From Actinokineospora auranticolor (GTDB taxonomy: Bacteria > Actinomycetota > Actinomycetes > Mycobacteriales > Pseudonocardiaceae), in contig NZ_PTIX01000016.1 in the NCBI RefSeq assembly GCF_002934265.1, positions 62,001 through 126,000 on the forward strand: a DNA stretch of 64,000 nt, written 5' to 3'. The notes beneath the pieces were generated by a model, which had not been told where the DNA came from, did not search any database, and was given only the letters and a program-made list of their open reading frames with translations. The translations under genes were made by a program, and so were the position numbers. Of this stretch, positions 1 to 15,800 are shown piece by piece. The number at the start of each line of letters is the position of its first letter. The first letter of the stretch is position 1.

Positions 1-1362
1 GGTGCCCGCGACGAGCGTGGGCACCACGTCCGCGGCCAGCCCGGCCAGCTCGACCGCGCGGGCGAAGCGGGCGAAGGCGGGCCGGGAGGCGTGGCGGCTC
101 GGCAGCGCGATCACGTCCCGGCTGATGACCGTCACGTCCCGGCCGCGCCGCGCGCGCAGGCAGGTCTGGACGCTGAGCGGCGCGGTGGTGCCGGTGCGCC
201 GGGCGTTGATCTCCAGCGGCACCAGCTCACCGGTCGGCCGCACGAGGAAGTCGATGTCGAACCACCCGCGGTAGCCCACCAGCGCGAGCTGCTCGCCGAC
301 CGCGACGCAGAACGCGGACAGCAACGCCGAGCGCGCGGGCGCGATCACCACGCCGTCGTCGGTGACCCCGCCCGCGAACTGGGTGCCGTTCATCGCCATG
401 GCCGTCACGCCCTCCAGGCGCACCCGTCCCAGGTGGTCGATGGTGCAGTCGCCGCTGACATCCGACCATGGGAGGTCGGAACGCCACTGGTAGTCCTGCA
501 CGATCGTGGGCAGTCCGTTGTGGAACGTGTCGTCTTCGCGCAGGCGCGCCAGCGTTTCGAGCACCGCGCGGCGGGTCGACGTCCGGTGCGGGGACAGCAC
601 GGCCGTGCCGTAGCCGCCGACGCCGAACGGCGCCTTGAGGACCACGGTCCGGCCGCGCGCGCCCGCGTCGACCAGGGTCGCGACCAGGTCCGGTTCGGAC
701 TCGCAGAGCCGCTCCCCGGTCAGGTGGATCCCGTCGGGGGAGTCCAGCGCGTTGTGCGCCTTGGCGAACAGCTCGGGGCTGGAGGCCTTGGACTCGGCGA
801 ACGCGGGTAACGCGGCGTCGGTGGACCGCACCGCGGCGGCTTCCGGCAGGTCCCGCGCGTACTCCCGGTACGGCGCGCTCTCGCCCCACGGGATGAGCCG
901 CGCGCCCGCGTCGACCGCCGCGCGCACCCGCGCGGACAGCACCGGGTCCGCGCCCAGCGCGGCGAACCCCGGCCCCAGCGGCCCCGGCACGGTGACCGGC
1001 TCGAACCGGTCCCACCCCAGCAGCGCCACCTGGCGCTCCCACCACGGTTCGCCGTCGAACTCCGGCACCAGGACCAACCCGGGGTCGGGGGAGTGGAACG
1101 GCGCCAGGCAGGCGTAGCCCAGGTCCCCGGCGGCGACGTCCGCGCGGACGTCGTCCGGTACCCCTTCGGGCAGCATCGCGTCGTGGAACTCGACCACGTT
1201 GCCGACGTGCACGTCACCCACGCGCCCGGCACCTACGTGAGCACCGTTCACCTTGCCCTCGCGGGGATGTGCGCCGGTGCGGACGTCCTTGCCCTTGTGG
1301 ACACCGCTCATGTGGACACCCCCGTCCCGAATCCCGCTCTCGTGCGGGTTCTCCGCGCTCAC
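1..1362 (-). CDS. ATP-grasp ligase, 3' end outside the window
   Basis: The leftward frame stays open for 454 codons to the window edge. ATP-grasp features are clear. A nucleotide-binding stretch LKAPFGVGGYG lies at about residues 242-252 (Lys243), and the metal-binding acidic strand FDIDFLV (368-374) is followed by VPLEINARRTG with Glu384 and Asn386. ATP-grasp enzymes join a carboxylate to an amine or thiol through an acyl phosphate. The gene begins 35 bases after the aminomutase upstream and is probably co-transcribed with it, so a beta-amino acid is a plausible substrate (inference). I chose GTG at 1362 because GGGAG precedes it; an in-frame ATG at 1311 is the alternative. The first 50 residues are Gly/His-rich and unlike a usual ATP-grasp N-terminus. 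Confidence 0.8.
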   Translation of the reverse strand, partial: MSAENPHESGIRDGGVHMSGVHKGKDVRTGAHPREGKVNGAHVGAGRVGDVHVGNVVEFHDAMLPEGVPDDVRADVAAGDLGYACLAPFHSPDPGLVLVPEFDGEPWWERQVALLGWDRFEPVTVPGPLGPGFAALGADPVLSARVRAAVDAGARLIPWGESAPYREYARDLPEAAAVRSTDAALPAFAESKASSPELFAKAHNALDSPDGIHLTGERLCESEPDLVATLVDAGARGRTVVLKAPFGVGGYGTAVLSPHRTSTRRAVLETLARLREDDTFHNGLPTIVQDYQWRSDLPWSDVSGDCTIDHLGRVRLEGVTAMAMNGTQFAGGVTDDGVVIAPARSALLSAFCVAVGEQLALVGYRGWFDIDFLVRPTGELVPLEINARRTGTTAPLSVQTCLRARRGRDVTVISRDVIALPSRHASRPAFARFARAVELAGLAADVVPTLVAGT

Positions 1363-1397
1363 CGGTCTCCCACCCCGCTCCCCCTTCCGCCCACCGC

Positions 1398-2363
1398 TCA
1401 GTCCTCGCGCGCCTTCCAGGTCTCCGTGCTGAGGGTCAGCCCGTCGAAGTCGGTGACGTGCCCCAGGTCGAAGTCCCAGTGGTTCGTCGGGACCAGCACC
1501 TTGCCGCGCGCGGCGGGCATGTCGATGACGTGCTGCGGGAAGGCGAGGCCGTCGAGCCGCTCGCGCAGCCGCGACATGATCGCCACCTCGTCGCGCAGGT
1601 CCATCTCGAACCGGGCCGTGGTCGGGATGCGCTGGCAGTGGTAGAGGTAGTACGGCCGCACCCCCAGCTGGAACAGCCTGGTGTAGAGGCGGTACAGGAC
1701 CTCGACGTCGTCGTTGACGCCCTTGAGGAACACGCTCTGGCAGATGAGGAGGTAGCCCATCGCGCGGAACTGGGCGATCAGGTCCTCCACCTCGGGCGTC
1801 AGCTCGTCCGGGTGGGAGATGTGCAGGCTCAGGTACATCGTCGGCCGCAAGGTGGCCAGCTTGCGCATGAGGTCGAGGTTGACCTGGCCCGGGGACTGCA
1901 CCGGGAACCTGGTGTGGATCCGCATGACCTTGACGTGCTCGACCTCGGCCAGCGAGGTGAACAGGTACTCCAACCCCTTGGGGTTGATCAGCGGGTCGCC
2001 GCCGCTGGCGATGATGTCGTGCAGCTCGCCGTCCTGCTTGACGTAGTCGACGATGGTGTCGATCTGCGCGGTCCCCAACCGCCCCAGGCGGTCGAGGCCG
2101 ACGCCGACCCGGTCCTGCCGCTCGCAGTAGCGGCAGTTGGCGCCGCAGGTGTACGAGAGCAGTACCAGCAGGCGTCCGTCGAACTTGCGCACCCCGCCGG
2201 GCACGGCGGTGTTGGCCTTCTCGCTGAGCAGGTCCCGTTCGATGTCGGCGGGGATGTCCTCGTGCGCCGGGTCGTAGACGTACATCTTGCGGACGGCGTC
2301 GCTGCGCTCGGCCAGTTCCAGCAGGTACGGCGTGGTCTTTTCCGCGAAGCGAGCTTCAGTCAT
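1398..2363 (-). CDS. KamA-family radical SAM/PLP amino acid 2,3-aminomutase
   Basis: This 321-residue protein belongs to the lysine/glutamate 2,3-aminomutase family, which moves an amino group from the alpha to the beta carbon using a [4Fe-4S] cluster, S-adenosylmethionine and PLP. Cys73, Cys77 and Cys80 form the radical-SAM CxxxCxxC motif (TCGANCRYC). SGGDP is present, and the PLP lysine is probably Lys288 in MPAARGKV near the C-terminus. The length matches the short EpmB/KamA-like members, which lack the long ends of clostridial lysine aminomutase. ATG 2363 is preferred; the frame is open to 2507, but that extension is Arg/Pro-rich and looks non-coding. The substrate cannot be read from sequence. 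With no epmA-like or acetyltransferase gene beside it, the adjoining ATP-grasp ligase is the likely next step. Confidence 0.88.
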   Translation of the reverse strand: MTEARFAEKTTPYLLELAERSDAVRKMYVYDPAHEDIPADIERDLLSEKANTAVPGGVRKFDGRLLVLLSYTCGANCRYCERQDRVGVGLDRLGRLGTAQIDTIVDYVKQDGELHDIIASGGDPLINPKGLEYLFTSLAEVEHVKVMRIHTRFPVQSPGQVNLDLMRKLATLRPTMYLSLHISHPDELTPEVEDLIAQFRAMGYLLICQSVFLKGVNDDVEVLYRLYTRLFQLGVRPYYLYHCQRIPTTARFEMDLRDEVAIMSRLRERLDGLAFPQHVIDMPAARGKVLVPTNHWDFDLGHVTDFDGLTLSTETWKARED

Positions 2364-2965: not shown

Positions 2966-5107
2966 ATGGCCAAGTCCGCAAGGCCTGCTTGGAGACGCGC
3001 GTGGGCCACGCCCGCGCGCAAGGCGGTACTGGGGGCGCTCGCCTCCGTTGCTGTCGCTCTTGGGGCCGCGGGTCTTGTGCAAGCGGGCACCGCCCGCACC
3101 GCGCTGCTCATCGGGGCCTGTACCGCCTTCGCCGCCCTGATCGCGGCTTTCCTCGTCCAGCTGGCCCGTTCGGCCGCCCCGGTGCCCGGTGACCTGGACG
3201 GCACCACCGTGGACAACTCCGCCGCCGCGGACGCCGCCGACGCCGCGCTGGTCCGCGACCCGGACTTCCTCGCGCTCGGCCTGGGCGGCACCAACATGAT
3301 GGCGATGCTGTGGACGGTCGCCATGGGCAAGCGCGCGGTCGGCGTGGAGATGCGCGGCGACCCGTCGCTCGGCGTGCACTGGAACATCCGCGAGGACCTG
3401 TACCACCACTTCGGACTGATCGACCAGATGATGCTGGAGCGCTACGGCGCCGACGGCGTGCCCAAGCGCGGCAACGGCACCCCGTTCCTGCTCGCCGAGT
3501 GCTTCTACCACCCCGACACCGCCGCGGGCGCGGTCGCCGCGGACGAGGTCGTCACCGGCTTCCTCGACTCGCACATCGGCGAGGACGCGCACGTGTCCGG
3601 CATCATCCACCACACCGAGTTCATCGACGACCGCTGGGCCGACGGCCGACCGCAGCGCGTGGTGACCGTCGTGGACTCCGCGCTGCCGCCGACCGACCAC
3701 GACCCGTCCAAGATCGGCAGGCCGATGGTGGAGGTCCTCGACGGACCCTCCACGTTCCAGGCGGGCGCCTCCGAGGTGCTCATCCTCCAGCGCCGCTACC
3801 TCGAGGCGATCGAGCGGATGGACCTCGAGCGCGGCGCGCGGCCCCGGGTCCGGTTGTTCACCAGCCACCGCGTGGTGACGCCGAACGACGACGGCGGCTA
3901 CCTGAACTGGCTGCGCCGCGACGAGGGCTTCACGCCGCAGCGCGACGGCCGGATGGGCGTGCGGATCGAGCAGATCCGCGAGCTGGACTACAAGGGCAAG
4001 TTCCGCCGCGTGCGGGTGCCCGGCACCGAGGTGCTCGACCTCGGCGTGCCCGAGCTGTTCATGATCGCGCAGGGCTTCGACAGCACCGACGCCACCCGCC
4101 TCGGCTTCCGCCAGGAGGAGGTCAAGGTGGACCACCAGGACGGCCGCGGCCCCGTGGTGGCCCAGGCCGACTACCTGGCCGGGCTGATGGAGGTCCTGGT
4201 CGACGGGCGGCTGCGCAGGCGCATCGCGTCGGAGTTCGACAAGCAGGGCAACGAGTACTGGGTGCGGCAGATCGCCGTGGGCCACCAGGACGACCCCGAG
4301 GTGGGCTGGATCCTGGTGCAGGTACCCGACTTCAAGACCTTCGACCCGATCCTGGCCGGACTGGTGCCCCCGGGCACCGACCGCAAGGCGCCGGAGTACT
4401 TCGCCGCGTACCAGTACCTGCTGCGCGACTTCTACCTCGAGCAGGTCTCGCACATCGTGGAGATCCCGCGCGAGGAACTGGAGTCGGTGCAGATCCCCTA
4501 CGGCCCCAAGCTGTTCAGCCTGGTCGAGCAGGTCGGCGCGGACGCGCTGGTGGCGGCCAACGGCGTCGTCGCGGGCGACTCCTTCGGCAACGGCCACTTC
4601 CTGACCAGCGGCGGCGCCATCACCGGCATGGTCGGCCACGGCGCCCGGGTGCTGCGCTACTGGGAGGCCCGGGCGGCGGGCGCCGACCAGCCGACCGCGG
4701 TGCGCGGGTTGGCCGACGGCATCAAGGCGGACACCGACGGGTGGCTGCACGTCAGCGCCCAGGAGTTCAGCCAGGCCGTGCCGATCAACTTCGGCGCCGA
4801 GCGGATCGAGCGGATCTCCGCGGCCAGCGGCAAGTCCACCGAGGCCCGCGCGAACACGATCGACGCCACCCGCAGGCACCGGCACTCGCTGGTGCCGCTC
4901 GACCCGTCGGACTGGCGGCGCCTGGTGATCCGCAGCGGCCGCACGCACGCGCTGTCGCTGCCCCCGCTCAGCCAGGTCCACCCCGCGCTGCGCGGGTCGG
5001 GGGAGGTGGCCGGGGAGTCCTCGGACGTGATGGCGGACGAGGCCGGGATGACCACCGGCAACGGCCAGGCGGACCTGGCCGCCCCGGCGCTGAACGCGGG
5101 GGCGTGA
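2966..5107 (+). CDS. Membrane-anchored FAD-dependent oxidoreductase-like protein
   Basis: The 713-residue protein has two N-terminal membrane helices (about 19-40 and 44-66) and a large soluble domain. That domain opens with a Rossmann-like dinucleotide site, LGLGGT at 104-109, then a helix and a second strand ending in Val-Glu (127-128), the usual ribose-binding acid. Near the C-terminus GDSFGNGH (Asp538) followed by TSGGAITGMVGHG resembles the second FAD motif of glutathione-reductase/hydroxylase-type flavoproteins. I infer a flavoenzyme at the membrane surface; the substrate is unknown. The following gene carries a second copy of the domain. Its ATG overlaps this stop as TGATG, so the two are translationally coupled. 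The start is ATG 2966 with GAAGGA upstream. Confidence 0.75.
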   Translation: MAKSARPAWRRAWATPARKAVLGALASVAVALGAAGLVQAGTARTALLIGACTAFAALIAAFLVQLARSAAPVPGDLDGTTVDNSAAADAADAALVRDPDFLALGLGGTNMMAMLWTVAMGKRAVGVEMRGDPSLGVHWNIREDLYHHFGLIDQMMLERYGADGVPKRGNGTPFLLAECFYHPDTAAGAVAADEVVTGFLDSHIGEDAHVSGIIHHTEFIDDRWADGRPQRVVTVVDSALPPTDHDPSKIGRPMVEVLDGPSTFQAGASEVLILQRRYLEAIERMDLERGARPRVRLFTSHRVVTPNDDGGYLNWLRRDEGFTPQRDGRMGVRIEQIRELDYKGKFRRVRVPGTEVLDLGVPELFMIAQGFDSTDATRLGFRQEEVKVDHQDGRGPVVAQADYLAGLMEVLVDGRLRRRIASEFDKQGNEYWVRQIAVGHQDDPEVGWILVQVPDFKTFDPILAGLVPPGTDRKAPEYFAAYQYLLRDFYLEQVSHIVEIPREELESVQIPYGPKLFSLVEQVGADALVAANGVVAGDSFGNGHFLTSGGAITGMVGHGARVLRYWEARAAGADQPTAVRGLADGIKADTDGWLHVSAQEFSQAVPINFGAERIERISAASGKSTEARANTIDATRRHRHSLVPLDPSDWRRLVIRSGRTHALSLPPLSQVHPALRGSGEVAGESSDVMADEAGMTTGNGQADLAAPALNAGA

Positions 5108-8100
5108 TGGACGCGATGACCGGGGCCGCGCTGCGGCCCGTCCCCGTGCTGCGCGGCCTGCGCGAGCGCCAGTTGGCGCTCGTCGTGCTCTGCGCGGGCA
5201 CCCTGATGATCATCCTCGACGGTTCCGTGGTGAACGTCGCGCTGCCGTCCATCCAGACCGACCTCGGGTTCGCCCAGACCGACCTGGCGTGGGTGATCAA
5301 CGCCTACCTGATCCCCTTCGGCGGGTTGCTGCTGCTGGCGGGTCGACTCGGTGACCTCTTAGGTCGCAAACGCCTGTTCATCAGCGGATTGGCCGTGTTC
5401 ACGGTCGCGTCGCTGGCCTGCGGGCTGGCGAACAGCCAGGCCGTGCTGATCGCGGCCCGGGCCGCGCAGGGCATCGGCGGGGCCGCCGCCTCGGCGGTGG
5501 TGCTCGGCATGATCGTGACGATGTTCCCCCGCCCGAGGGAGCAGGCCCGCGCGGTCGGCGTCTACTCCTTCGTGGCCGCGGCGGGCGCCTCGCTCGGCCT
5601 GCTGGCCGGTGCCGCGCTCACCGAGGCGATCAACTGGCACTGGATCTTCTTCGTCAACCTGCCCCTCGGCGCGGCGACCATCGTCGCGGCGCTGCGGCTG
5701 CTCGACGAGAACACCGCCGACACCGACGCGCAGACCTCGGACGTGCTGGGCGGTCTGCTGATCACCCTGGGCCTGTCGCTGTGGGTCTACACGATCGTGC
5801 AGGCCGGGGAGACCGGCTGGGGCTCGACGCGCACGATCGTGCTGTGCGCGGTGTCCACCGCGCTGGTGCTCGGCTTCGTCGCGCACCAGGCGCGGGCCCG
5901 GGACCCGTTGGTGCCCCTGGGCATCTTCCGCGCCCGCAACGTCGGCTGGGCGAACCTGGTGCAGACGCTGATGGTGGCCGGGTTCGCCGGGGTCTTCTTC
6001 CTCGGCGCGCTGTACATGCAGAACGTGCTGCGGTTCAGCGTCGCCGAGGTCGGGCTGGCGTTCCTGCCCGCCGCGGCGGCCATCGCGACGCTGTCGCTGA
6101 AGGTCACGCCGAAGCTGGTGGACAAGGTCGACGCCAAGGCCGTGCTGGTGCCGGGCATGCTCCTCATGGTCGCGGGCCTGGCGCTGTTCGCCAGGGTCCC
6201 GGTCGACGGGGACTACCTGGTGGACGTGCTGCCGGTGATGCTGCTGCTCGGCACCGGCGCGGGTCTGTGCTTCCCCGCCGTGATCACGGTCGCCATGGCC
6301 GACGCCACCACCAGCGACGCGGGTGTGCGCTCCGGTCTGGTCAACACGACCCAGCAGATGGGCCCCGCGCTCGGCCTGGCCGTGCTGGCCGCGATGTCCA
6401 GCGCGCGCACCGGCGACGCGCTGGCGGACGGCGTGCCCGCGCTGGAGGCGCTGACCTCCGGCTACCGGCTGGCGTTCCTCGTCGGGGCCGGGATCGTGCT
6501 GGTCGCCGCCGTGCTGGGCATGACCGTCGTGCAGCCCGCGGTGCCGAAGACGGCGCCGAAGTCCCTGGACGACACCGCGGTCGACGCGCACGACCACAAC
6601 CTCGCGGGCGTGCGCGACCCGGACTACCTGGCCCTCGGGCTCGGCGGCACCGGGATGATGGGCATGCTGTGGTCGGTCGCGGAGGGCAAGCGGGCCGTCG
6701 GTGTCGAGCTGCGCGGCGACCCGTCGTACGGGGTCATGCACTGGAACCTCAACGCCGACATCTACCACCACCTCGGCGTCATCGACCAGCTGATGCTGGA
6801 GCGCTACGGCGCCGACGGCGTGCCCAAGCGCGGCGACGGCAGCCTGTTCCGGCTCGCGGAGTGCCTCTACAGCACCGAGACCGAGGCGGGCGACGCCTCC
6901 GCCGACGAGGTGGTCAGCGGGTTCGACCTGGAGTCGCACGTCGGCGGCGTGGTCTTGCACGAGGAGCACGTCGACGACCGCTGGCTCGACGGCAGGCCGC
7001 ACCGGGTCGTCGCCGACCTGGGCGGCATGACGCCGCCCACCGGCCCGGACCCGTCGCGGCTCGGCCGCGACCTCGCCGAGGTGCTGGCGGACCGGCCGAC
7101 GTTCCTCGCGGGCGCCGAGGAGGTGCTGGTGATCCTGCGCCGGTACCTGGAGGCCGTGGAGGCCATGGACCTCGCGTCCGGCCGCGAGCCCCGCGTGCGG
7201 CTGTTCACCAGCCACCGCGTGCTCACCGAACCGCGGCGCGCGGCCAAGGGCGCCACCGGGTTCGAGCGGCAGCCCGACGGCAGGCTGCGGGTGCGCCTGG
7301 AGATGGTGCGCAGCCTCGACCACAAGGGCAAGTTCCGCCGCGTCGCGGTGGACAACGCCGAGATCGTCGACCTGGGCGTGCCCGGTCTGATCGTGATCGC
7401 CGAGGGCCAGTCCGGCGCCGACGCGCGCAGGCTCGGGTTCACCCAGCGCGACGTCCGCGTCGACCACGGCGACGGCAACGGCCCGGTGCCCGCGCAGGCG
7501 GACTACCTGGCCGGGCTGATCGAGGTGTTCATCGACAGCCGGGTGCGCAGGCGGGTGTCCACCGAGTTCGACCGCAACGGCACCGCCTACACCACGCGCC
7601 AGATCGCGATCGGGCACGAGGACGACGCCGAGGTCGGCTGGGTGCTGATCGAGGTGCCGGAGTTCAAGACCTTCGACCCGGTGCTCGCGGGGCTGGTGCC
7701 GGAGGGCACCGCCAAGGACACCGCGAAGTACTTCGCCGCCCACCAGCTGCTGATGCGGGACTTCTTCCTGGAGCAGACCGCGCACCTGCTGGAGATCCCC
7801 AAGGCCGAGCTGGCCAAGATCCAGCTCACCTACGGGCCAAAGCTGTTCCGCCTCGTGGAGCGGATCGGCTCGGACGCGGTGGTCGCGGCCAACGCCGTGG
7901 TCGCGGGCGACTCCTTCGGCAACGGGCACGTGCTCACCAGCGGCGGTGTCACCACCGGCATGGTCGGCCACGCCCACCGCGTGCTGCGGTACTGGCGGGC
8001 CCGCGAGTCGGGGGTGACCCACGAGCAGGCGCTGCGCGACCTCGCCGACGGGATCAAGGCCGACACCCAGGCCTGGATCCGGCACAGCGAGTCGGAGTTC

Positions 8101-8295
8101 AGCCCGATGCCACCCGCGGACCGCCGGGCGTTGGCCGCGACCCGCGAGCACCGGGCGTCGCTGCTGATCCGCGACCACTCCGACGAGTGGATCCGGGTCG
8201 TGATCCAGGCGGGCAGGCTGCACGCGTACGCGCTGCCGCCGCTGGCCGACACGCACCCGGCGGCCCGCGCCGCCGCGGAGTCGCCGTCGTCCTGA
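5107..8295 (+). CDS. DHA2-type MFS exporter fused to an FAD-dependent oxidoreductase-like domain
   Basis: This 1,062-residue protein is a natural fusion. Residues 1 to about 480 form an EmrB/QacA (DHA2) drug:H+ antiporter with about 14 helices; NVALPSIQTDL and GRLGDLLGRKRLF are classic motifs. After a short linker, residues from about 500 repeat the soluble domain of the preceding gene. LGLGGT is at 510-515, ERYGADGVPKRG, VRLFTSHRV, KTFDP and LAGLVP are conserved, and GDSFGNGH (Asp935) lies near the end. The frame is continuous, with no stop or codon-use break, so this is not two genes. The preceding protein places the same domain behind only two helices. I infer a pump whose substrate is modified by, or gated through, the attached redox domain. 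A strong hairpin follows. Confidence 0.85.
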   Translation: MDAMTGAALRPVPVLRGLRERQLALVVLCAGTLMIILDGSVVNVALPSIQTDLGFAQTDLAWVINAYLIPFGGLLLLAGRLGDLLGRKRLFISGLAVFTVASLACGLANSQAVLIAARAAQGIGGAAASAVVLGMIVTMFPRPREQARAVGVYSFVAAAGASLGLLAGAALTEAINWHWIFFVNLPLGAATIVAALRLLDENTADTDAQTSDVLGGLLITLGLSLWVYTIVQAGETGWGSTRTIVLCAVSTALVLGFVAHQARARDPLVPLGIFRARNVGWANLVQTLMVAGFAGVFFLGALYMQNVLRFSVAEVGLAFLPAAAAIATLSLKVTPKLVDKVDAKAVLVPGMLLMVAGLALFARVPVDGDYLVDVLPVMLLLGTGAGLCFPAVITVAMADATTSDAGVRSGLVNTTQQMGPALGLAVLAAMSSARTGDALADGVPALEALTSGYRLAFLVGAGIVLVAAVLGMTVVQPAVPKTAPKSLDDTAVDAHDHNLAGVRDPDYLALGLGGTGMMGMLWSVAEGKRAVGVELRGDPSYGVMHWNLNADIYHHLGVIDQLMLERYGADGVPKRGDGSLFRLAECLYSTETEAGDASADEVVSGFDLESHVGGVVLHEEHVDDRWLDGRPHRVVADLGGMTPPTGPDPSRLGRDLAEVLADRPTFLAGAEEVLVILRRYLEAVEAMDLASGREPRVRLFTSHRVLTEPRRAAKGATGFERQPDGRLRVRLEMVRSLDHKGKFRRVAVDNAEIVDLGVPGLIVIAEGQSGADARRLGFTQRDVRVDHGDGNGPVPAQADYLAGLIEVFIDSRVRRRVSTEFDRNGTAYTTRQIAIGHEDDAEVGWVLIEVPEFKTFDPVLAGLVPEGTAKDTAKYFAAHQLLMRDFFLEQTAHLLEIPKAELAKIQLTYGPKLFRLVERIGSDAVVAANAVVAGDSFGNGHVLTSGGVTTGMVGHAHRVLRYWRARESGVTHEQALRDLADGIKADTQAWIRHSESEFSPMPPADRRALAATREHRASLLIRDHSDEWIRVVIQAGRLHAYALPPLADTHPAARAAAESPSS

Positions 8296-8355: not shown

Positions 8356-8402
8356 CACCCGCGTCTGCCATCGTGTCCGGGGAGAGATCCCTGGGGGAGA
8401 TC

Positions 8403-9641
8403 ATGACCACGCATCAGACCGTCTTCCTGTTCTTGGACCTGGCCGTCGTCGTCGCGCTCGCCCGCCTGGTCGGCGCCCTCGCCCGGCGCCTGGGGCAACC
8501 CGCGGTCATCGGCGAGATCCTGGCCGGTGTGCTGATCGGCCCGAGCCTGCTCGGCACCGGCGTGACCGACGTGCTGTTCCCCGCCGACGTCCGCCCACTG
8601 CTGTCCACCCTGGCCAACGTGGGCGTGGCGGTGTTCATGTTCGGCATCGGCGTCGAGCTGGACCGCGCCCTGTTGCGCGGCAAGGGGAAACTCGCGACCG
8701 CGGTGTCCCTCGCCTCGATCGCGCTGCCGTTCGCGCTGGGCGCGCTGCTGGCCCTGTACCTCGTGGGCAACCACACGGCGCCGCACCGGCTCGGGTTCGT
8801 CCTGTTCATCGGCGCGGCGATGTCGGTGACGGCGTTCCCCGTGCTGGCCCGGATCCTCGCCGACCGCGGCCTGTCGAGGACCCCCGTGGGCGGCATCGCC
8901 CTGGTGTGCGCCGCGGCGGGCGACCTGCTCGCCTGGTGCCTGCTCGCCGTCGTCGTCCTGGTTTCCGGCGGCGGTGGACAGTGGTTGTTCCTCTGGGGTC
9001 CGGCCTACCTCGTGGTGATGCTCTGGCTGGTCCGCCCACTGCTGCGCAAGGTGCTCACCGACCGCGTGCCGACCTCGGTGGCCCTGTCGATCCTGATCGC
9101 GGGTCTGCTGCTCTCCGGCGCCGCCACGGAGTGGATCGGCCTGCACTTCATCTTCGGCGCGTTCCTGTTCGGCGTGGTGGTCCCGCACGAGGGGACCAGC
9201 AGGCTGCGCGAGTCGGTGGTCGAGCGGATCGACCTGTTCAACGGGACGTTGTTGCTGCCGGTGTTCTTCATCGTGGCGGGGCTCAAGGTGGACCTGTCGG
9301 CCATCGGCGCCACCGGCGTGCTGGAGCTGGCGCTGGTCCTCGTGGCCGCCGTCACCGGGAAACTGGGCGGTGCCTTCGCCGCCGCGCGGCTCAACGGCAT
9401 GCCGACCAGGGAGGCCGCCGGGCTCGGGGTGCTGATGAACACCCGGGGCCTGACCGAACTGATCATCCTGTCCGTCGGGCTGCGACTGGGGATGCTGGAC
9501 CAGCGCCTGTACTCGGTCATGGTGGTGATGGCCATCGTCACCACCGCCATGGCGGGCCCGCTCCTGCGCCTCCTCGACCTGCCGACCGACCCGCCCGCCC
9601 CGGTGCACCGGCCGCGGACGGCCGCGGCCGCCGCCGAGTAG
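8403..9641 (+). CDS. Kef/CPA2-family monovalent cation:proton antiporter
   Basis: This is a 412-residue integral membrane protein of the CPA2 (KefB/GerN/NapA) family, exchanging Na+ or K+ for protons. The repeated start GQPAVIGEILAGVLIGPSLLG is typical, as is the mid-protein helix with an acidic residue (AAAGDLLAWCL), where family members bind the ion. There is no C-terminal TrkA-N or TrkA-C regulatory domain, so it is a membrane-only form. ATG 8403 follows GGGGGAG; an upstream in-frame start at 8373 is possible. It lies beyond a strong hairpin after the MFS-flavoprotein gene and is probably a separate transcript, so any link to the neighbouring redox exporter is positional only. Confidence 0.88.
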   Translation: MTTHQTVFLFLDLAVVVALARLVGALARRLGQPAVIGEILAGVLIGPSLLGTGVTDVLFPADVRPLLSTLANVGVAVFMFGIGVELDRALLRGKGKLATAVSLASIALPFALGALLALYLVGNHTAPHRLGFVLFIGAAMSVTAFPVLARILADRGLSRTPVGGIALVCAAAGDLLAWCLLAVVVLVSGGGGQWLFLWGPAYLVVMLWLVRPLLRKVLTDRVPTSVALSILIAGLLLSGAATEWIGLHFIFGAFLFGVVVPHEGTSRLRESVVERIDLFNGTLLLPVFFIVAGLKVDLSAIGATGVLELALVLVAAVTGKLGGAFAAARLNGMPTREAAGLGVLMNTRGLTELIILSVGLRLGMLDQRLYSVMVVMAIVTTAMAGPLLRLLDLPTDPPAPVHRPRTAAAAAE

Positions 9642-10190: not shown

Positions 10191-10817
10191 ATGGGTGAGT
10201 TCGTCGGGGCGGCGTTGAGCTTCCCGGCCGTGCTGTTCAGCTTCCTGCTCGTCGTGGTCGTCGGCTACTGGCTGCTGGTGCTCGTCGGGCTGTCCGAGAT
10301 AGACCTTCCCGGTGCCCCGGACCCCGACGGCATCGGGCTGGGCGGCGTGCCGCTGACCGTCGCCGTGTCCGTGGTGACGGTCGTGGCCTGGTTCCTCGCG
10401 CTGGTCTCCGGCGTGCTCCTCGACGACCTCGGCCTCGCGGGCGCCCTCCTGGTCATCGCCCGCGCGGTGGCCCTGGTCGTCGTGCTGGTGGTCGCGCTGC
10501 TGGTCACCAGGCTTGTCGTCATCCCGTTGCGGAAGGCGTTCCCGGAGGACGCCGGGCCCAAGCGGGCGGACTTCGTCGGGCTGGTGTGCGTCGTGCGCAC
10601 CGGGTCGGTGGACCGGACCTTCGGGCAGGCCGAGGTGACCTCGGTCGACGGGTCCTCCGCCGTCATCCAGGTCCGGCAGCCCGGAGTGGAGCCGCTGCGG
10701 GCGGGCAGCACCGCCGTCATCCACGACTACGACCCGGTGGGCGAGTTCTTCTGGATCACCCCGGTCGACCTGACCCCCCTCGCGGACCCCCGCGACCAAC
10801 CACGGCCAAGGGACTAG
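10191..10817 (+). CDS. YqiJ-like inner-membrane protein with OB-fold tail (flotillin partner)
   Basis: This 208-residue protein has an N-terminal helix (about 10-33), two or three more hydrophobic helices to about residue 110, and a C-terminal beta-rich segment (GLVCVVRTGSVDRTF to the end) that fits the OB-fold of the YqiJ/NfeD-like group. Such proteins accompany flotillins and probably help to assemble them in membrane microdomains. It sits 4 bases before the flotillin gene, the same pairing as E. coli yqiJ-yqiK. The start is ATG 10191 with GAGGAGG upstream. The assignment rests on topology, the tail and context, since the primary sequence is weakly conserved. Confidence 0.7.
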   Translation: MGEFVGAALSFPAVLFSFLLVVVVGYWLLVLVGLSEIDLPGAPDPDGIGLGGVPLTVAVSVVTVVAWFLALVSGVLLDDLGLAGALLVIARAVALVVVLVVALLVTRLVVIPLRKAFPEDAGPKRADFVGLVCVVRTGSVDRTFGQAEVTSVDGSSAVIQVRQPGVEPLRAGSTAVIHDYDPVGEFFWITPVDLTPLADPRDQPRPRD

Positions 10818-10821
10818 AAGC

Positions 10822-12828
10822 ATGGACGTCATCTCCACCGGGCTGGGTGTGCTGCTCGGCGTCATCCTCCTCGTCGTCATCGTCCTGCTGTTCCTGATCG
10901 GCAGGCTGTTCCGCAAGGTCGACCAGGGCAAGGCGCTGATCGTGTCGAAGGTGAAGAAGGTCGACGTGACCTTCACCGGCGCGGTCGTGCTCCCGGTGCT
11001 GCACAAGGCCGAGGTCATGGACATCTCGGTGAAGACCATCGAGATCAACCGGGCGGGCACCGAGGGGCTGATCTGCCGGGACAACATCCGCGCCGACATC
11101 CGGATCACGTTCTTCGTGCGGGTCAACAAGACCGTCGAGGACGTCATCAAGGTGGCGCAGGCGATCGGCACCGCGCGGGCCAGCGACGAGCAGACGTTGC
11201 AGGTGCTGTTCAACGCGAAGTTCTCCGAGGCGCTCAAGACCGTCGGCAAGCACCTGGACTTCGTCGACCTCTACACCAAGCGCGACGAGTTCCGCGACCA
11301 GATCATCCGGGTGATCGGCACCGACCTCAACGGCTACAGCCTGGAGGACGCGGCGATCGACTACCTGGAGCAGACGCCGATGGCGCAGCTGGACGCGGCG
11401 AACATCCTCGACGCCCAGGGCATCCGCAAGATCACCGAACTCACCGCGGTCGAGCACGTGCGCACCAACGAGTACCGGCGCAACGAGGAGAAGGAGATCA
11501 CCCGGCAGAACGTCGACGCCCGGGAGGCCATCCTCGAACTCGAGCGCAGGCAGGCGGACGCGGAGATCAAGCAGCGCCGCGAGATCGACACCATGCGCGC
11601 CCGGGAAGAGGCCGAGACGCAGAAGGTGCAGGCCGAGGAGCGGCTCAAGGCCCAGGGCGCGAACCTGCGCACCGACGAGTCGCTCGGCATCCAGGCGGAG
11701 AACCAGGCCCGCGAGATCGCCGTCGCGCAGAAGAACCGCGAGCGGGTCATCGCGATCGAGACCGAGCGGATCGAGAAGGACCGGCTGCTGGAGGTCATCT
11801 CCCGCGAGCGCGAGACCGAGCTGTCGCGGATCGCCAAGGACAAGGAGGTCGAGGGCGAGAAGCGCGCCGTCGCCGAGGTCGTCCGGGAGCGGATCGCGGT
11901 CGACCGGACGGTGGCCGAGCAGGAGGAGAACATCAAGCGGCTGCGCGCGGTCGAGGAGGCCGAGCGCGGGCGCCAGGCGCTGGTGATCGCCGCCGAGGCC
12001 GCCGCGCAGGAGAACCTGGTCAAGGACATCAAGGCCGCGGAGGCGGCCGAGGCCGCCGCCAAGCACAAGGCCCGCGAGGAGATCGTGCTCGCCGAGGCCC
12101 GCCAGCAGGCCGCCGAGCTGGACACCCGCGCGCAGATCCGGCTCGCCGAGGGCGAGCAGGCCCGGGCCGCCGCGACCGGGCTCGCCGAGGTGCAGGTGCG
12201 CGAGCGCGACGCCGCCGCGATCGAGAAGGTGGGTCGCGCGGAGGCCGCTGTCGCCCGCGAGAAGGCGATGGTCGAGGCCGCCGCGATCCGGGAGAAGCTC
12301 AAGGGCGAGGCCGAGGGCCTGTCAGAGAAGGCGGGCGCGCTCGCCGCGATGGACGACGCGACCCGCGAGCACGAGGAGTACCGGCTCCGGCTGGAGGCGG
12401 ACACCTCGGTGCGGCTGCGCGGGATCGACGTGCAGCGCGAGGTCGCCGAGGCGCAGGCGATGGTGCTGGCCGCCGGGCTGGAGAAGGCCGACATCGACAT
12501 CGTCGGCGGCGAGTCGATGTTCTTCGACAAGATCGTCGGCGCGGTGTCGCTCGGCAAGAGCGTCGACGGCTTCCTGGACCACTCGGAGACGGCGCGCACG
12601 CTGGCCCGGCCGTGGCTGGACGGTTCGTCGAGCTTCACCGACGACCTGCGCGGCCTGCTCGGCTCGCTCGGCAGCGAGGACGTGAAGAACCTGACCGTGT
12701 CGGCGCTGCTGCTCAAGATGATCAACTCGGACGGCGGCGAGTCCGGCAAGCTCCGGGAGCTGCTCGGGCACGCGCAGCGGTTAGGGGTGGCGGACAAGCC
12801 GGTGGCCGCCCTCGCCGCGAGCCTGTAG
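10822..12828 (+). CDS. Flotillin-like protein (YqiK family)
   Basis: The 668-residue protein has one N-terminal membrane helix (about 8-31). A SPFH/band-7 domain follows (about 32-220, with VDQGKALIV, TEGLICRDNIRADIRITFFV and DFVDLYTKRDEF). A long charged coiled coil (about 220-560) is rich in Ala-Glu-Arg repeats, and a short C-terminal domain ends the protein. This is the layout of bacterial flotillins, which oligomerise on the inner membrane face and organise membrane domains. It stands between a YqiJ-like gene and a giant AAA ATPase gene (6 bases apart), clearly one operon. The C-terminal region beyond the coil (SMFFDKIVGAVSLG onward) probably contacts the ATPase; that is inference. Confidence 0.9.
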   Translation: MDVISTGLGVLLGVILLVVIVLLFLIGRLFRKVDQGKALIVSKVKKVDVTFTGAVVLPVLHKAEVMDISVKTIEINRAGTEGLICRDNIRADIRITFFVRVNKTVEDVIKVAQAIGTARASDEQTLQVLFNAKFSEALKTVGKHLDFVDLYTKRDEFRDQIIRVIGTDLNGYSLEDAAIDYLEQTPMAQLDAANILDAQGIRKITELTAVEHVRTNEYRRNEEKEITRQNVDAREAILELERRQADAEIKQRREIDTMRAREEAETQKVQAEERLKAQGANLRTDESLGIQAENQAREIAVAQKNRERVIAIETERIEKDRLLEVISRERETELSRIAKDKEVEGEKRAVAEVVRERIAVDRTVAEQEENIKRLRAVEEAERGRQALVIAAEAAAQENLVKDIKAAEAAEAAAKHKAREEIVLAEARQQAAELDTRAQIRLAEGEQARAAATGLAEVQVRERDAAAIEKVGRAEAAVAREKAMVEAAAIREKLKGEAEGLSEKAGALAAMDDATREHEEYRLRLEADTSVRLRGIDVQREVAEAQAMVLAAGLEKADIDIVGGESMFFDKIVGAVSLGKSVDGFLDHSETARTLARPWLDGSSSFTDDLRGLLGSLGSEDVKNLTVSALLLKMINSDGGESGKLRELLGHAQRLGVADKPVAALAASL

Positions 12829-12834
12829 CACCCG

Positions 12835-15800
12835 ATGACCGACACCACGGAGACCACCGGGCCCGCGCTCGACGCCGGTACCTACGAGGTCCTGCGGGCC
12901 CGGCTCGGCGAGCAGGCCGCCGAGCTGGCCCGGCGGGCCGAGGCGCTCAACGACGACCGGCTGCGCGTGTTCGGCGGCACCGAGCTGCGGCTGGTCGGCA
13001 CCGAGCGGATCCGCACGGAGAACAACTGCGTCCCGCGCGACATCATCTCCGTCGACGGGCTGATGCTGTTCGGCTACAACGTGTTCATCGGCCTCAAGCC
13101 GGAGACCTCGGTCGACGACGTGTTCTCCCTGCACCGCTTCGCCCGCGACGGCGAGGCGTTCCGCTTCGAGGCGGCGGGGCCGGACGAGCTGCCCGAGCTG
13201 TTGCGCGGGGAGGGTTTCCGGCGCGACTTCGGCGAGCTGTACCGGTACTACCGCGAGACCAGGCTGCTGCAGCTGCGGCACGTCGAGGGCAAGCTGCTCG
13301 CGGTGTTCCAGACCGGGCCGCGCACCGAGGACGTGAAGGTCCTGCGCTGGAACATCGCCCCCGGCGGCGCGGTGTCCTATGCGGACAACCGCGGCGAACG
13401 CGACCACGTGTTCCCGCCCGCGCAGGACTTCGAGTGGGTCGAGACCACGCGTGACGACCACGTGCTCGGCCGGTTCCCGCACATCTCCATCCTGGGCAAG
13501 GTCTTCGTGGAGACCGTGCGCGGCGACCTGACCGTCAAGGTCGAGAACAACACCGAGACCGGCGAGGGCATCTACGCCGAACCGGTCGCCGAGCCGTTGC
13601 AGAGCCTCGCCGACGCGGACGTGTACTACGCCGAGGTCGGCTCGCTGATCCTCCTCCGGATCCGCCCCTACAACGAGACCGAGTGGCGGCACCTGGTCTT
13701 CGACACCCGCGCCCGCTCGGTCGTCCGCCTCGACGGCATCGGCCAGGCCTGCCGCAGGCTCCCCGAGGACCAGGGGATCATCTTCCCCGGCGGCTACTAC
13801 CTGGCCACCGGCGTGCACAAGACGTTCGACACCGAGGTGGCGAGCCTGGAGTACGAGCGCGTCATCCGCTCGCCCAACGGCGAGGACGTCCTCTACGCCT
13901 TCCACGCCCGCGAGGAGGGCCGCACGCTTCTGCTGCCCTACAACGTGATCCGCAAGGAAGTGGCCAACCCGCTGGTCTGCCACGGGTACTCGCTGTTCGA
14001 CGACGGCACCCTCGTGGTGTTCCGCGCGACGTCCGAGGAACCCACCCGCGTGCACCCCATGCAGGTCTGGCAGACGCCCTACCTGTCCGACACCTACGCC
14101 GCCGCGCGGCCCGTCGGCACCGGGCCGCTGGAGCGGGTCGGCAACGCGGACCTGGTGCGCGGCATCTCCGACTGCCTGTCGGTGGCCCAGATGGTCGGCG
14201 ACATGGCCCCGTCGACCGCGGTGTTCGAGGCGCTGATCACGACCTGCGCGCGCGTGTTCGACCACTACCACTGGCTCGGCGAGGCCGACCTCGGTGACCT
14301 GCGCACACCGCTGGCCCAGGTGCGTTCCACCGCCGAGCAGGTGCTCGACGAGTTCGAGACCGTGCAGGCCCTCACCCGCCAGGCCGCCGACGCCCTCGCC
14401 GAGGCCGGTGCCCAGGTCGGCGCGCTGGTGCGGTCCGCGCGCGGCGCGGCGCCGAAGTCGGCGGACGGGTGGGTCGCCCAGCTCGCGGACCTGCGGCGGG
14501 CCCAGGGCAGGCTCGTCACCCTGCGGGAGCGGCGGTACCTCGATCTGGCCACAGTGGACTCGTTGACCGCGGAGCTGGCCGCCGAGCTGGTCTCCGCCGG
14601 GCAGCGAGCGGTGGCCTTCCTCGGTGGCGCGGACGCCTTCGCGGGCTACCACGAGCAGGTCGACCGGCTCGTGGCCGACGCGGCGGCCATCGGCACGGTG
14701 GCCGAGGCCGGACCGGTGGGGGAGCGGCTCGCGGAACAGGCCGAGGGGCTGGAGATCGTCACCGACGTGGTCGGTTCGCTCGACATCGCCGACGCCACCG
14801 CGCGCACCGCCATCCTGGAACGCGTCGGCGAGGTGCTGGGCGGGGTCAACCGGGCCCGCGCCACGCTCGCCGCGCGGCGCGGGGAGCTGCTGGCCACCGA
14901 GGGGCGGGCGGAGTTCGCGGCCGAGTTCGCGCTGCTCGGCCAGGCGGTCACCGGCGCGCTCGCGGTCGCCGACACGCCGCAGCGCTGCGACGACCAGCTC
15001 GGCAGGCTCATGCTCCGGCTGGAGAACCTGGAGTCGCGGTTCGGCGAGTTCGACGACTTCCTCACCGAACTCGGCGAGAAGCGCTCGGACGTCTACGAGG
15101 TGTTCTCCTCGCGCAAGCAGGCGCTGCTCGACGAGCGCGCCCGCCGCGCGGACCGGCTGGTCGAGTCGGCGGACCGGGTGCTCGGCAGCGTCCAACGCAG
15201 ACTGTCTACTCTGGCCTCGCTGGACGACATCAACACCTACTTCGCCTCGGACCCGATGGTCGCCAAGCTGCGCGCGGTCACCGACGACCTGCGCGAGATC
15301 GGCGACCAGGTGCGGGCCGAGGAGCTCGCGGGCAGGCTCAAGGCCGCCCGGCAGGAGGCGGGGCGCGCGCTGCGCGACCGGCTCGACCTGTTCACCGACG
15401 GCGGCGACACCCTGCGGTTCGGCAAGCACGCCTTCGCCGTCAACACCCAGCCGCTCGACCTGACCCTGGTCCCGCACGACGGCGGCATGGCCTTCGCGGT
15501 GACCGGCACGGACTACCGCGCGGCCGTCACCGACCCGGACTTCGCCCAGACGCGCGGGTACTGGGACCAGCTGCTGGTCTCCGAGTCGCCCGAGGTCTAC
15601 CGCGCCGAGCACCTGGCCGCCGCGATCCTGACCACCGGTGACCTGGACGCGCTGCACGCGGCGGCCGTCGAGTCCGGCGGTCTGCTCGCGGCCGTGCGCG
15701 CCGCCGCCGAGTCGCGGTACGACGAGGGCTACGAGCGCGGTGTGCACGACCACGACGCGGCCCTGATCCTGGACGTCCTGCTGCGGCTGCACGCGGGCGC

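What the first reader, a model, noticed from the sequence alone, without database searches (positions are those of the whole stretch)
2966..8295. A flavoprotein domain used twice: once on a two-helix anchor, once fused to a 14-helix MFS exporter
The two coupled genes share ERYGADGVPKRG, VRLFTSHRV, KTFDP, LAGLVP and VVAGDSFGNGH, so they are paralogous. In one protein the domain follows two helices; in the other it follows a complete DHA2 exporter. A redox enzyme covalently attached to a drug-type exporter is unusual and suggests oxidation or reduction of the cargo during export, or redox gating. That FAD is bound is inferred from the LGLGGT and GDSFGNGH motifs only.
Basis: partly seen in the sequence, partly recalled or inferred. 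Interest (0 to 1): 0.8.

Follow-up and report, generated by a model that had tools for sequence, protein, structure and literature searches.

The report
Flavoenzyme-like domain fused to antibiotic-cluster exporter
In soil bacteria that appear to make fortimicin-type aminoglycoside antibiotics, an unnamed flavoenzyme-like protein occurs as two copies, and in one lineage the second copy is welded onto the drug exporter, which suggests that finishing and exporting the antibiotic may be one coupled act.

Summary
Confirmed. ORF 2966-5107 and ORF 5107-8295 share a ~580-residue domain (360 of 640 residues identical), and the second ORF begins with a complete 14-helix DHA2 exporter. The domain matches no Pfam or NCBIfam model; its AlphaFold model has the group A flavoprotein-monooxygenase fold (Z 22-23), so the flavin guess holds at fold level, with FAD binding untested. 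The fusion is real: found in 11 genomes, each time beside a free copy, as one clade. Four related clusters hold two free copies and an unfused exporter, from a separate duplication (AU p 0.0045). Both kinds of second copy altered the LGVHWNIRE loop and lost the PINFGAERI segment, yet keep most conserved positions; the fused ones evolve faster, still under purifying selection. Best reading: the free copy is the catalyst, and the exporter-borne copy an altered subunit that docks it at the exporter, coupling a late redox step to export. Reaction and docking are inferred. The two-helix anchor is peculiar to the window and its closest relative.

The parts
2966..5107 (+). First copy: 713-aa protein, two N-terminal helices (16-37, 43-70), then a flavoprotein-monooxygenase-fold domain (about 94-680)
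   Evidence: a comparable anchor only in A. iranica by hydropathy
5107..6546 (+). DHA2 (14-helix) MFS exporter part of ORF2, residues 1-480
   Evidence: TIGR00711 237.9 over cut-off 230.2; 14 helices; VIA Z 47.2 to EfpA 8ufd
6547..6591 (+). Low-confidence linker (residues 481-495) between exporter and domain
   Evidence: pLDDT under 50 at 481-495
6592..8295 (+). Second copy of the domain, exporter-borne, about residues 496-1060 of ORF2
   Evidence: 56% identity to the first copy over 640 columns; flavoprotein monooxygenases among the Foldseek hits of the whole model
6700..6760 (+). Altered loop of the second copy, with a one-residue insertion (M544)
   Evidence: M544 in 10 of 10 fused copies scored and absent from 36 of 36 first copies; the most diverged fused copy (L024) was left out of this count
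8373..9641 (+). CPA2-type cation/proton antiporter (Na_H_Exchanger), next gene, same strand
   Evidence: PF00999 7.6e-51; homologues next to, or one gene from, the domain gene in 9 of 37 loci, this one counted
1..1221 (-). Protein without Pfam match whose gene runs out of the window; the cluster enzymes lie beyond it in the same contig (locus L040)
1398..2363 (-). Radical SAM protein of the lysine-2,3-aminomutase-like (KamA) group, between the cluster enzymes and the pair
   Evidence: TIGR03822 225.3, below its cut-off 396; no match in the 27 other regions

Best explanation
The pair is the redox-and-export module of a fortimicin-type aminoglycoside gene cluster. The free first copy is probably an FAD enzyme with the group A monooxygenase fold that performs a late oxidation on the aminoglycoside or on an intermediate. 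The second copy keeps the fold but has altered one conserved loop and lost another segment, and is probably a non-catalytic or changed subunit. In one lineage it became fused to the cytosolic end of the DHA2 exporter, where it would recruit the first copy by heterodimer formation and couple the final step to export. Shown by computation: the architecture, the fold of the models, the cluster type by its enzymes, one clade of fusions, a separate origin of the free second copies, the shared losses, and the split form. Inferred: FAD binding, the cargo, the reaction, heterodimer formation, and coupling.
For: Fold: P0001 model pLDDT 80.4, pTM 0.80; VIA Z 23.1 to 2-hydroxybiphenyl 3-monooxygenase and 22.6 to p-hydroxybenzoate hydroxylase; 551 Foldseek hits at E<=0.001. 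Cluster: scyllo-inosose aminotransferase 2.8e-98, C-6' aminotransferase 7.1e-162, APH(3') above its cut-off, inositol monophosphatase. Setting: at least 2 of 13 cluster-enzyme markers in 13 of 14 other two-copy loci and in 0 of 22 single-copy loci. Fusion: 11 genomes, one clade (domain 89/99; exporter 100/99). Separate second copies in four clusters (AU p 0.0045), each with an unfused best-matching exporter within about 13 kb. Shared losses: 15 of 196 conserved columns lost in both kinds of second copy, 5.0 expected. Kept: G105, W116, G121, R130, R417, R419, R434, Q435, G537, D538 in 11 of 11 fused copies; dN/dS of fused copies 0.16-0.61 against 0.11-0.26 in first copies.
Against: No cofactor, activity, cargo or complex was tested. 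The overlap of lost columns may partly reflect columns that are weakly constrained anyway. H138 is kept in 6 and R142 in 5 of 11 fused copies; G107 is S in 4 of 11 fused copies; the free second copies of S. kobensis and G556 lack the GD pair (S, N), so 'fold kept, FAD kept' is not uniform. The pTM of the fusion model is 0.60, so the placement of the two parts is unsure. No N-formimidoyl fortimicin A synthase homologue was found in the window's own 56-kb region, so its product may be another aminoglycoside. The first copy also occurs in quite different settings without exporter fusion.
Confidence: 0.42

Rival explanations
1. Both copies are active flavoenzymes with different substrates: the free copy acts during biosynthesis, and the exporter-borne copy oxidises or reduces the cargo as it enters the exporter.
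For: Fused copies keep 76.6% of 196 conserved columns; selection is still purifying in the six pairs tried; H138 is kept in 6 of 11.
Against: Both separately arisen kinds of second copy lost the same segment and altered the same loop; the only fused-specific invariant position found is an insertion, M544.
Confidence: 0.25
2. The domain is a redox or ligand sensor that gates transporters, comparable to the flavoprotein subunits of Kef antiporters: the exporter-borne copy gates the MFS exporter and the first copy the adjacent CPA2 antiporter.
For: A CPA2 antiporter gene lies next to or one gene from the domain gene in 9 of 37 loci, in actinobacteria and in one Ktedonobacter; in two proteins from other bacteria the domain carries an FHA signalling domain.
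Against: In 28 of 37 loci no CPA2 homologue was found in the region held; in 8 of 37 a PLP-dependent decarboxylase homologue lies near by, which suggests an enzyme of metabolism. The Kef comparison is recalled.
Confidence: 0.17
3. The first copy is an ordinary early biosynthetic enzyme and the fusion only fixes expression ratio or location, without functional coupling.
For: The first copy occurs in other biosynthetic settings without exporter fusion.
Against: Exporter and second copy recur together in split and fused forms; fused copies and their partners diverge in step, r 0.97 over 55 genome pairs, though shared descent alone could give that.
Confidence: 0.14
4. Sequencing or assembly artefact joining two genes.
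For: None found.
Against: The same fusion in 11 genomes.
Confidence: 0.01

Closest known systems
Group A flavoprotein monooxygenases (p-hydroxybenzoate hydroxylase, 2-hydroxybiphenyl 3-monooxygenase, squalene epoxidase)
   Same: Fold: Z 22-23 over 325-348 aligned residues in the ten best rows; Rossmann-like start and a conserved GD pair late in the chain.
   Different: Identity 9-14% in those rows, no Pfam or NCBIfam match, about 580 residues, NAD(P)H motif not clearly conserved; cofactor and activity unknown.
DHA2 (EmrB/QacA/EfpA) drug exporters
   Same: Whole 14-helix transporter, NCBIfam cut-off passed, Z 47.2 to EfpA.
   Different: Carries a C-terminal flavoprotein-fold domain of about 560 residues.
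Fortimicin/gentamicin-type aminoglycoside gene clusters
   Same: scyllo-inosose aminotransferase, C-6' aminotransferase, APH(3'), glycosyltransferase, GMC oxidoreductase, B12 radical SAM protein; in related loci an N-formimidoyl fortimicin A synthase homologue.
   Different: Contains the domain pair, which is not mentioned in the passages seen of the papers on fortimicin clusters; product unknown.
N-formimidoyl fortimicin A synthase / BD-12 Orf1 (PMC10156733, passages seen)
   Same: FAD enzyme finishing an aminoglycoside-type antibiotic; homologues sit in 9 of the loci.
   Different: Glycine-oxidase (DAO) family, a different protein from the domain studied here.

Membership tests
Group A flavoprotein monooxygenase | p-hydroxybenzoate hydroxylase fold | tested here: met
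   Z 22-23, rmsd 3.0-3.9 over 325-348 residues in the ten best rows, model residues about 93-612
Group A flavoprotein monooxygenase | N-terminal GxGxxG nucleotide-binding motif (recalled) | tested here: inconclusive
   GLGGTN in the window: G105 and G107 conserved in first copies, third glycine absent
Group A flavoprotein monooxygenase | GD motif contacting FAD (recalled) | tested here: met
   G537 and D538 in at least 35 of 36 first copies and 11 of 11 fused copies; S and N in the S. kobensis and G556 second copies
Group A flavoprotein monooxygenase | DG motif for FAD and NAD(P)H (recalled) | tested here: inconclusive
   D413-G414 in the window, but GG in the Ktedonobacteria rows and mostly altered in fused copies
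Group A flavoprotein monooxygenase | Bound FAD and NAD(P)H-dependent oxygenation | not testable with these tools
   Needs purified protein
DHA2 exporter | Sequence family model | tested here: met
   TIGR00711 237.9 over 230.2
DHA2 exporter | 14 transmembrane helices | tested here: met
   14 helices of 15 or more residues in the model
DHA2 exporter | Drug transport | not testable with these tools
   Needs transport or susceptibility assay
Fortimicin-type aminoglycoside cluster | Cyclitol aminotransferase, C-6' aminotransferase, aminoglycoside kinase | tested here: met
Fortimicin-type aminoglycoside cluster | myo-Inositol route (dehydrogenase and phosphatase) | tested here: inconclusive
   PF00459 inositol monophosphatase met; TIGR04380 298.7 below its cut-off 355
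Fortimicin-type aminoglycoside cluster | N-formimidoyl fortimicin A synthase homologue | tested here: not met
   None in the window's own 56-kb region at E 1e-6; present in 9 loci, the one that gave the query counted. It is a tailoring gene; 5 other two-copy loci also lack it in the region held

The most novel reading that the evidence does not exclude
An oxidise-on-export module: the exporter carries a degenerate copy of a flavoenzyme as a docking subunit for the active copy, so that the last redox step of an aminoglycoside takes place at the exporter and the active drug hardly meets the producer's own ribosomes. The duplicate-and-degenerate step evolved twice, and in one lineage was made permanent by fusion.
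Probability: 0.3. Interest if true: 0.82.

Novelty: new variant of a known kind. Interest (0 to 1): 0.62.

Why it matters
It points out a flavoprotein-fold family without a Pfam or NCBIfam model, in a definite biosynthetic setting, and a natural covalent link between a redox-type domain and an antibiotic exporter, with split counterparts for comparison. If coupling is real, it is a way for aminoglycoside producers to finish the drug only while it leaves the cell, and the pair is a handle for finding further clusters of this type.

Tried and rejected
Pfam, NCBIfam, PADLOC and PDB sequence searches with the domain gave nothing significant. The phage collection gave one weak match at E 0.4, taken as chance. 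A first phylum search with one protein as query found only the own genome, 1 of 396. Sequencing error at the fusion was rejected. The two-helix anchor as a defining trait was rejected. A single origin of all second copies was rejected (quick tree of 48 rows, the three third copies and four near-identical Ktedonobacter rows left out, test run after the first tree had been seen). Sister grouping of fused and split exporters is only weakly supported (68/39). Literature: ten searches. Three returned no paper, and no listed title or abstract start in the others was about this fusion; lists were capped (10 of 32, 15 of 32). Passages only were seen of PMC12090562 (its section 18 in full), PMC11405602, PMC12498427, PMC10156733 and PMC6804068. 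The fortimicin cluster record AJ628421 was not examined, so whether it holds the domain is unknown. Viral contigs were not scanned.

Full report
What is there. ORF1 (2966-5107, 713 aa) and ORF2 (5107-8295, 1062 aa) overlap in TGATG and are followed after 77 bases by a CPA2 antiporter gene (8373-9641) on the same strand. The two proteins share 360 of 640 aligned residues. ORF2 starts with a DHA2 exporter that passes the NCBIfam cut-off.

The domain. It matches no Pfam or NCBIfam family and no PDB sequence significantly (best E 0.33, 1.1). AlphaFold with a 39-row alignment gave pLDDT 80.4 and pTM 0.80 for ORF1. Foldseek returned 551 chains at E<=0.001, headed by squalene epoxidase; VIA-align gave Z 22-23 to 2-hydroxybiphenyl 3-monooxygenase, p-hydroxybenzoate hydroxylase and PqsL over 325-344 residues. 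The fold is therefore that of group A flavoprotein monooxygenases. That is not proof of FAD or of oxygenation: the first glycine motif lacks its third glycine and the DG motif (recalled) is not clearly conserved. The ORF2 model (pLDDT 84.9, pTM 0.60) shows 14 long helices, a low-confidence linker at 481-495 and the domain. Its exporter part has Z 47.2 to EfpA, and flavoprotein monooxygenases appear among the Foldseek hits of the whole model. A cytosolic place for the domain follows from established DHA2 topology, not from a test here.

Distribution. One pattern-based scan of genome contigs gave 28 loci in actinobacteria, Ktedonobacteria/Chloroflexota and a few MAGs. Surveys found the domain in 1 of 396 genomes of the phylum with one protein as query (the own genome) and, with the alignment, in 10 of 249 of the own family, 6 of 250 of the family of Dactylosporangium vinaceum (one of the six a weak partial match), 6 of 297 of the family of Actinoallomurus soli and 3 of 394 of the family of Streptomyces MUM 203J. 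It is rare. The exporter fusion was found in 11 genomes, spread over three of these family searches: the window's, A. iranica, A. terrae, A. diospyrosa, A. pegani, G471; D. vinaceum, G899, G768; Microtetraspora (L024) and Actinoallomurus soli. In each a free copy lies directly beside it. The two-helix anchor stands out by hydropathy only in the window (2.53) and A. iranica (2.32) among 36 first copies; the next values are 1.81 (inside an NAD-binding domain, Streptomyces RerS4) and 1.77 (G899), and 8 extensions were too short to score.

Setting. Upstream of the pair, in the same contig (L040), lie an inositol 2-dehydrogenase-like protein (298.7, below the cut-off of 355), an inositol monophosphatase, an APH(3') kinase above its NCBIfam cut-off, a class III aminotransferase, a zinc alcohol dehydrogenase (sub-threshold match), a TylF-like methyltransferase, two radical SAM proteins, one of them B12-binding, and a DegT aminotransferase. 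The last is closest in the PDB to L-glutamine:2-deoxy-scyllo-inosose aminotransferase (2.8e-98), and the class III enzyme to a C-6' aminotransferase (7.1e-162). An FAD enzyme in the A. terrae locus is closest to N-formimidoyl fortimicin A synthase (4.8e-113); homologues are in 9 loci, the one that gave the query counted, but five other two-copy loci lack it in the region held, and none was found in the window's own 56 kb. At least 2 of 13 enzyme markers, taken from the window's cluster, occur in 13 of 14 other two-copy loci and in 0 of 22 single-copy loci. The exception, A. diospyrosa, shares other cluster genes with A. terrae. The regions held differ in length (7.7-40 kb), and the longest belong to two-copy loci; among the eight two-copy loci of under 22 kb, 7 have at least 2 markers.

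History. In a tree of 55 rows the fused copies form one clade (89/99) and their free partners another (91/90), neither starred; in a quick tree of 48 rows the fused clade has SH-aLRT 99.5. Second free copies in MUM 203J, G438, S. kobensis and G556 group with those genomes' own first copies (97/93, starred), and holding all second copies together is rejected (AU p 0.0045; the test was chosen after the first tree had been seen). The duplication therefore seems to have happened at least twice. In all four genomes of the second kind the best match to the window's exporter is unfused and lies between the two domain genes or within about 13 kb of one, with a clear lead over the next paralogue (450 against 358, 433 against 295, 420 against 261, 419 against 253 bits). 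S. kobensis and G556 are near-identical here and count almost as one. The fused exporters are one clade (100/99) and the split ones another (100/100); their sister relation is weak (68/39). One fusion, with split counterparts, is the simplest account.

What the second copy lost. Of 196 columns that are invariant (or all but one) in 36 first copies, fused copies keep 76.6%, free second copies 78.7% and three far third copies 44% (a broken Ktedonobacter copy was left out). Thirty-nine columns are mostly lost in fused and 25 in free second copies; 15 are lost in both, 5.0 expected. The shared losses include L135 and R142 of the LGVHWNIRE loop, and N608, G610 and R613 of the PINFGAERI segment; within the loop H138 is kept in 6 of 11 fused copies and R142 in 5 of 11. 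Uneven constraint among columns can explain part of the overlap. G105, W116, G121, R130, R417, R419, R434, Q435, G537 and D538 are kept in 11 of 11 fused copies, but G107 is S in 4 of 11, and the free second copies of S. kobensis and G556 have lost the GD pair. Fused copies have an extra M544 in the loop in 10 of 10 scored (L024 left out). The loop follows the second strand, where p-hydroxybenzoate hydroxylase has its flavin- and NADPH-contacting arginines (recalled). dN/dS by a simple count is 0.16-0.61 in fused and 0.11-0.26 in first copies over six pairs that share genomes, higher in the fused copy in each pair: relaxed, but still selected. Fused copies are less alike than their partners in 55 of 55 genome pairs.

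Mechanism. The evidence fits a catalytic first copy and an altered second copy whose value lies in its tie to the exporter: docking or control. Heterodimers are an inference. The main rivals are two active enzymes, redox gating of transporters (an antiporter gene lies next to or one gene from the domain gene in 9 of 37 loci), and mere co-expression. No result here tells the reaction. Eight of 37 loci, all with a single copy, have a PLP-dependent decarboxylase homologue near by (one of them confirmed by Pfam), so the family's chemistry is probably metabolic.

Known or new. The parts are known kinds: a flavoprotein fold, a DHA2 exporter and an aminoglycoside cluster. The combination was not seen in the listings and passages of ten searches of a library that lacks most subscription journals.

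Noticed in passing
window 10191-17718: A small membrane protein (by eye), a flotillin-like protein (by eye) and a 1627-aa AAA ATPase with DUF3686 and DUF7902 follow the pair on the same strand.
   Followed up: no
window 1-2363 (minus strand): A protein without Pfam match and a KamA-group radical SAM protein lie between cluster enzymes and pair; neither has a match in the 27 other regions.
   Followed up: partly
L011 11224-13740: On a Streptomyces plasmid, near a type I polyketide synthase gene, the domain follows a prephenate dehydrogenase NAD-binding domain in one frame.
   Followed up: partly
L032 9791-12340 and L034 3932-6178: The domain carries a C-terminal FHA domain in a Ktedonobacterium and an Ilumatobacteraceae MAG.
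   Followed up: partly
L025 9566-12760 and L031 9719-12898: The domain has a C-terminal extension of about 350-400 residues; only L025 was scanned, without Pfam match.
   Followed up: no
L013 17944-20637, L036 16683-18539, L114 15448-18297: A third, far diverged copy (33% identical to the first in L013 and L036) stands near the glycosyltransferase gene in three of the fusion clusters.
   Followed up: partly
L037 9941-12261: One of two copies in Ktedonobacter SOSP1-85 is split over two reading frames (153 and 673 aa), a broken gene or an assembly error.
   Followed up: no
L026, L033: The domain sits with a VioC-like oxygenase (by eye), a PLP decarboxylase homologue and a CPA2 antiporter, a different small cluster type.
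   Followed up: partly
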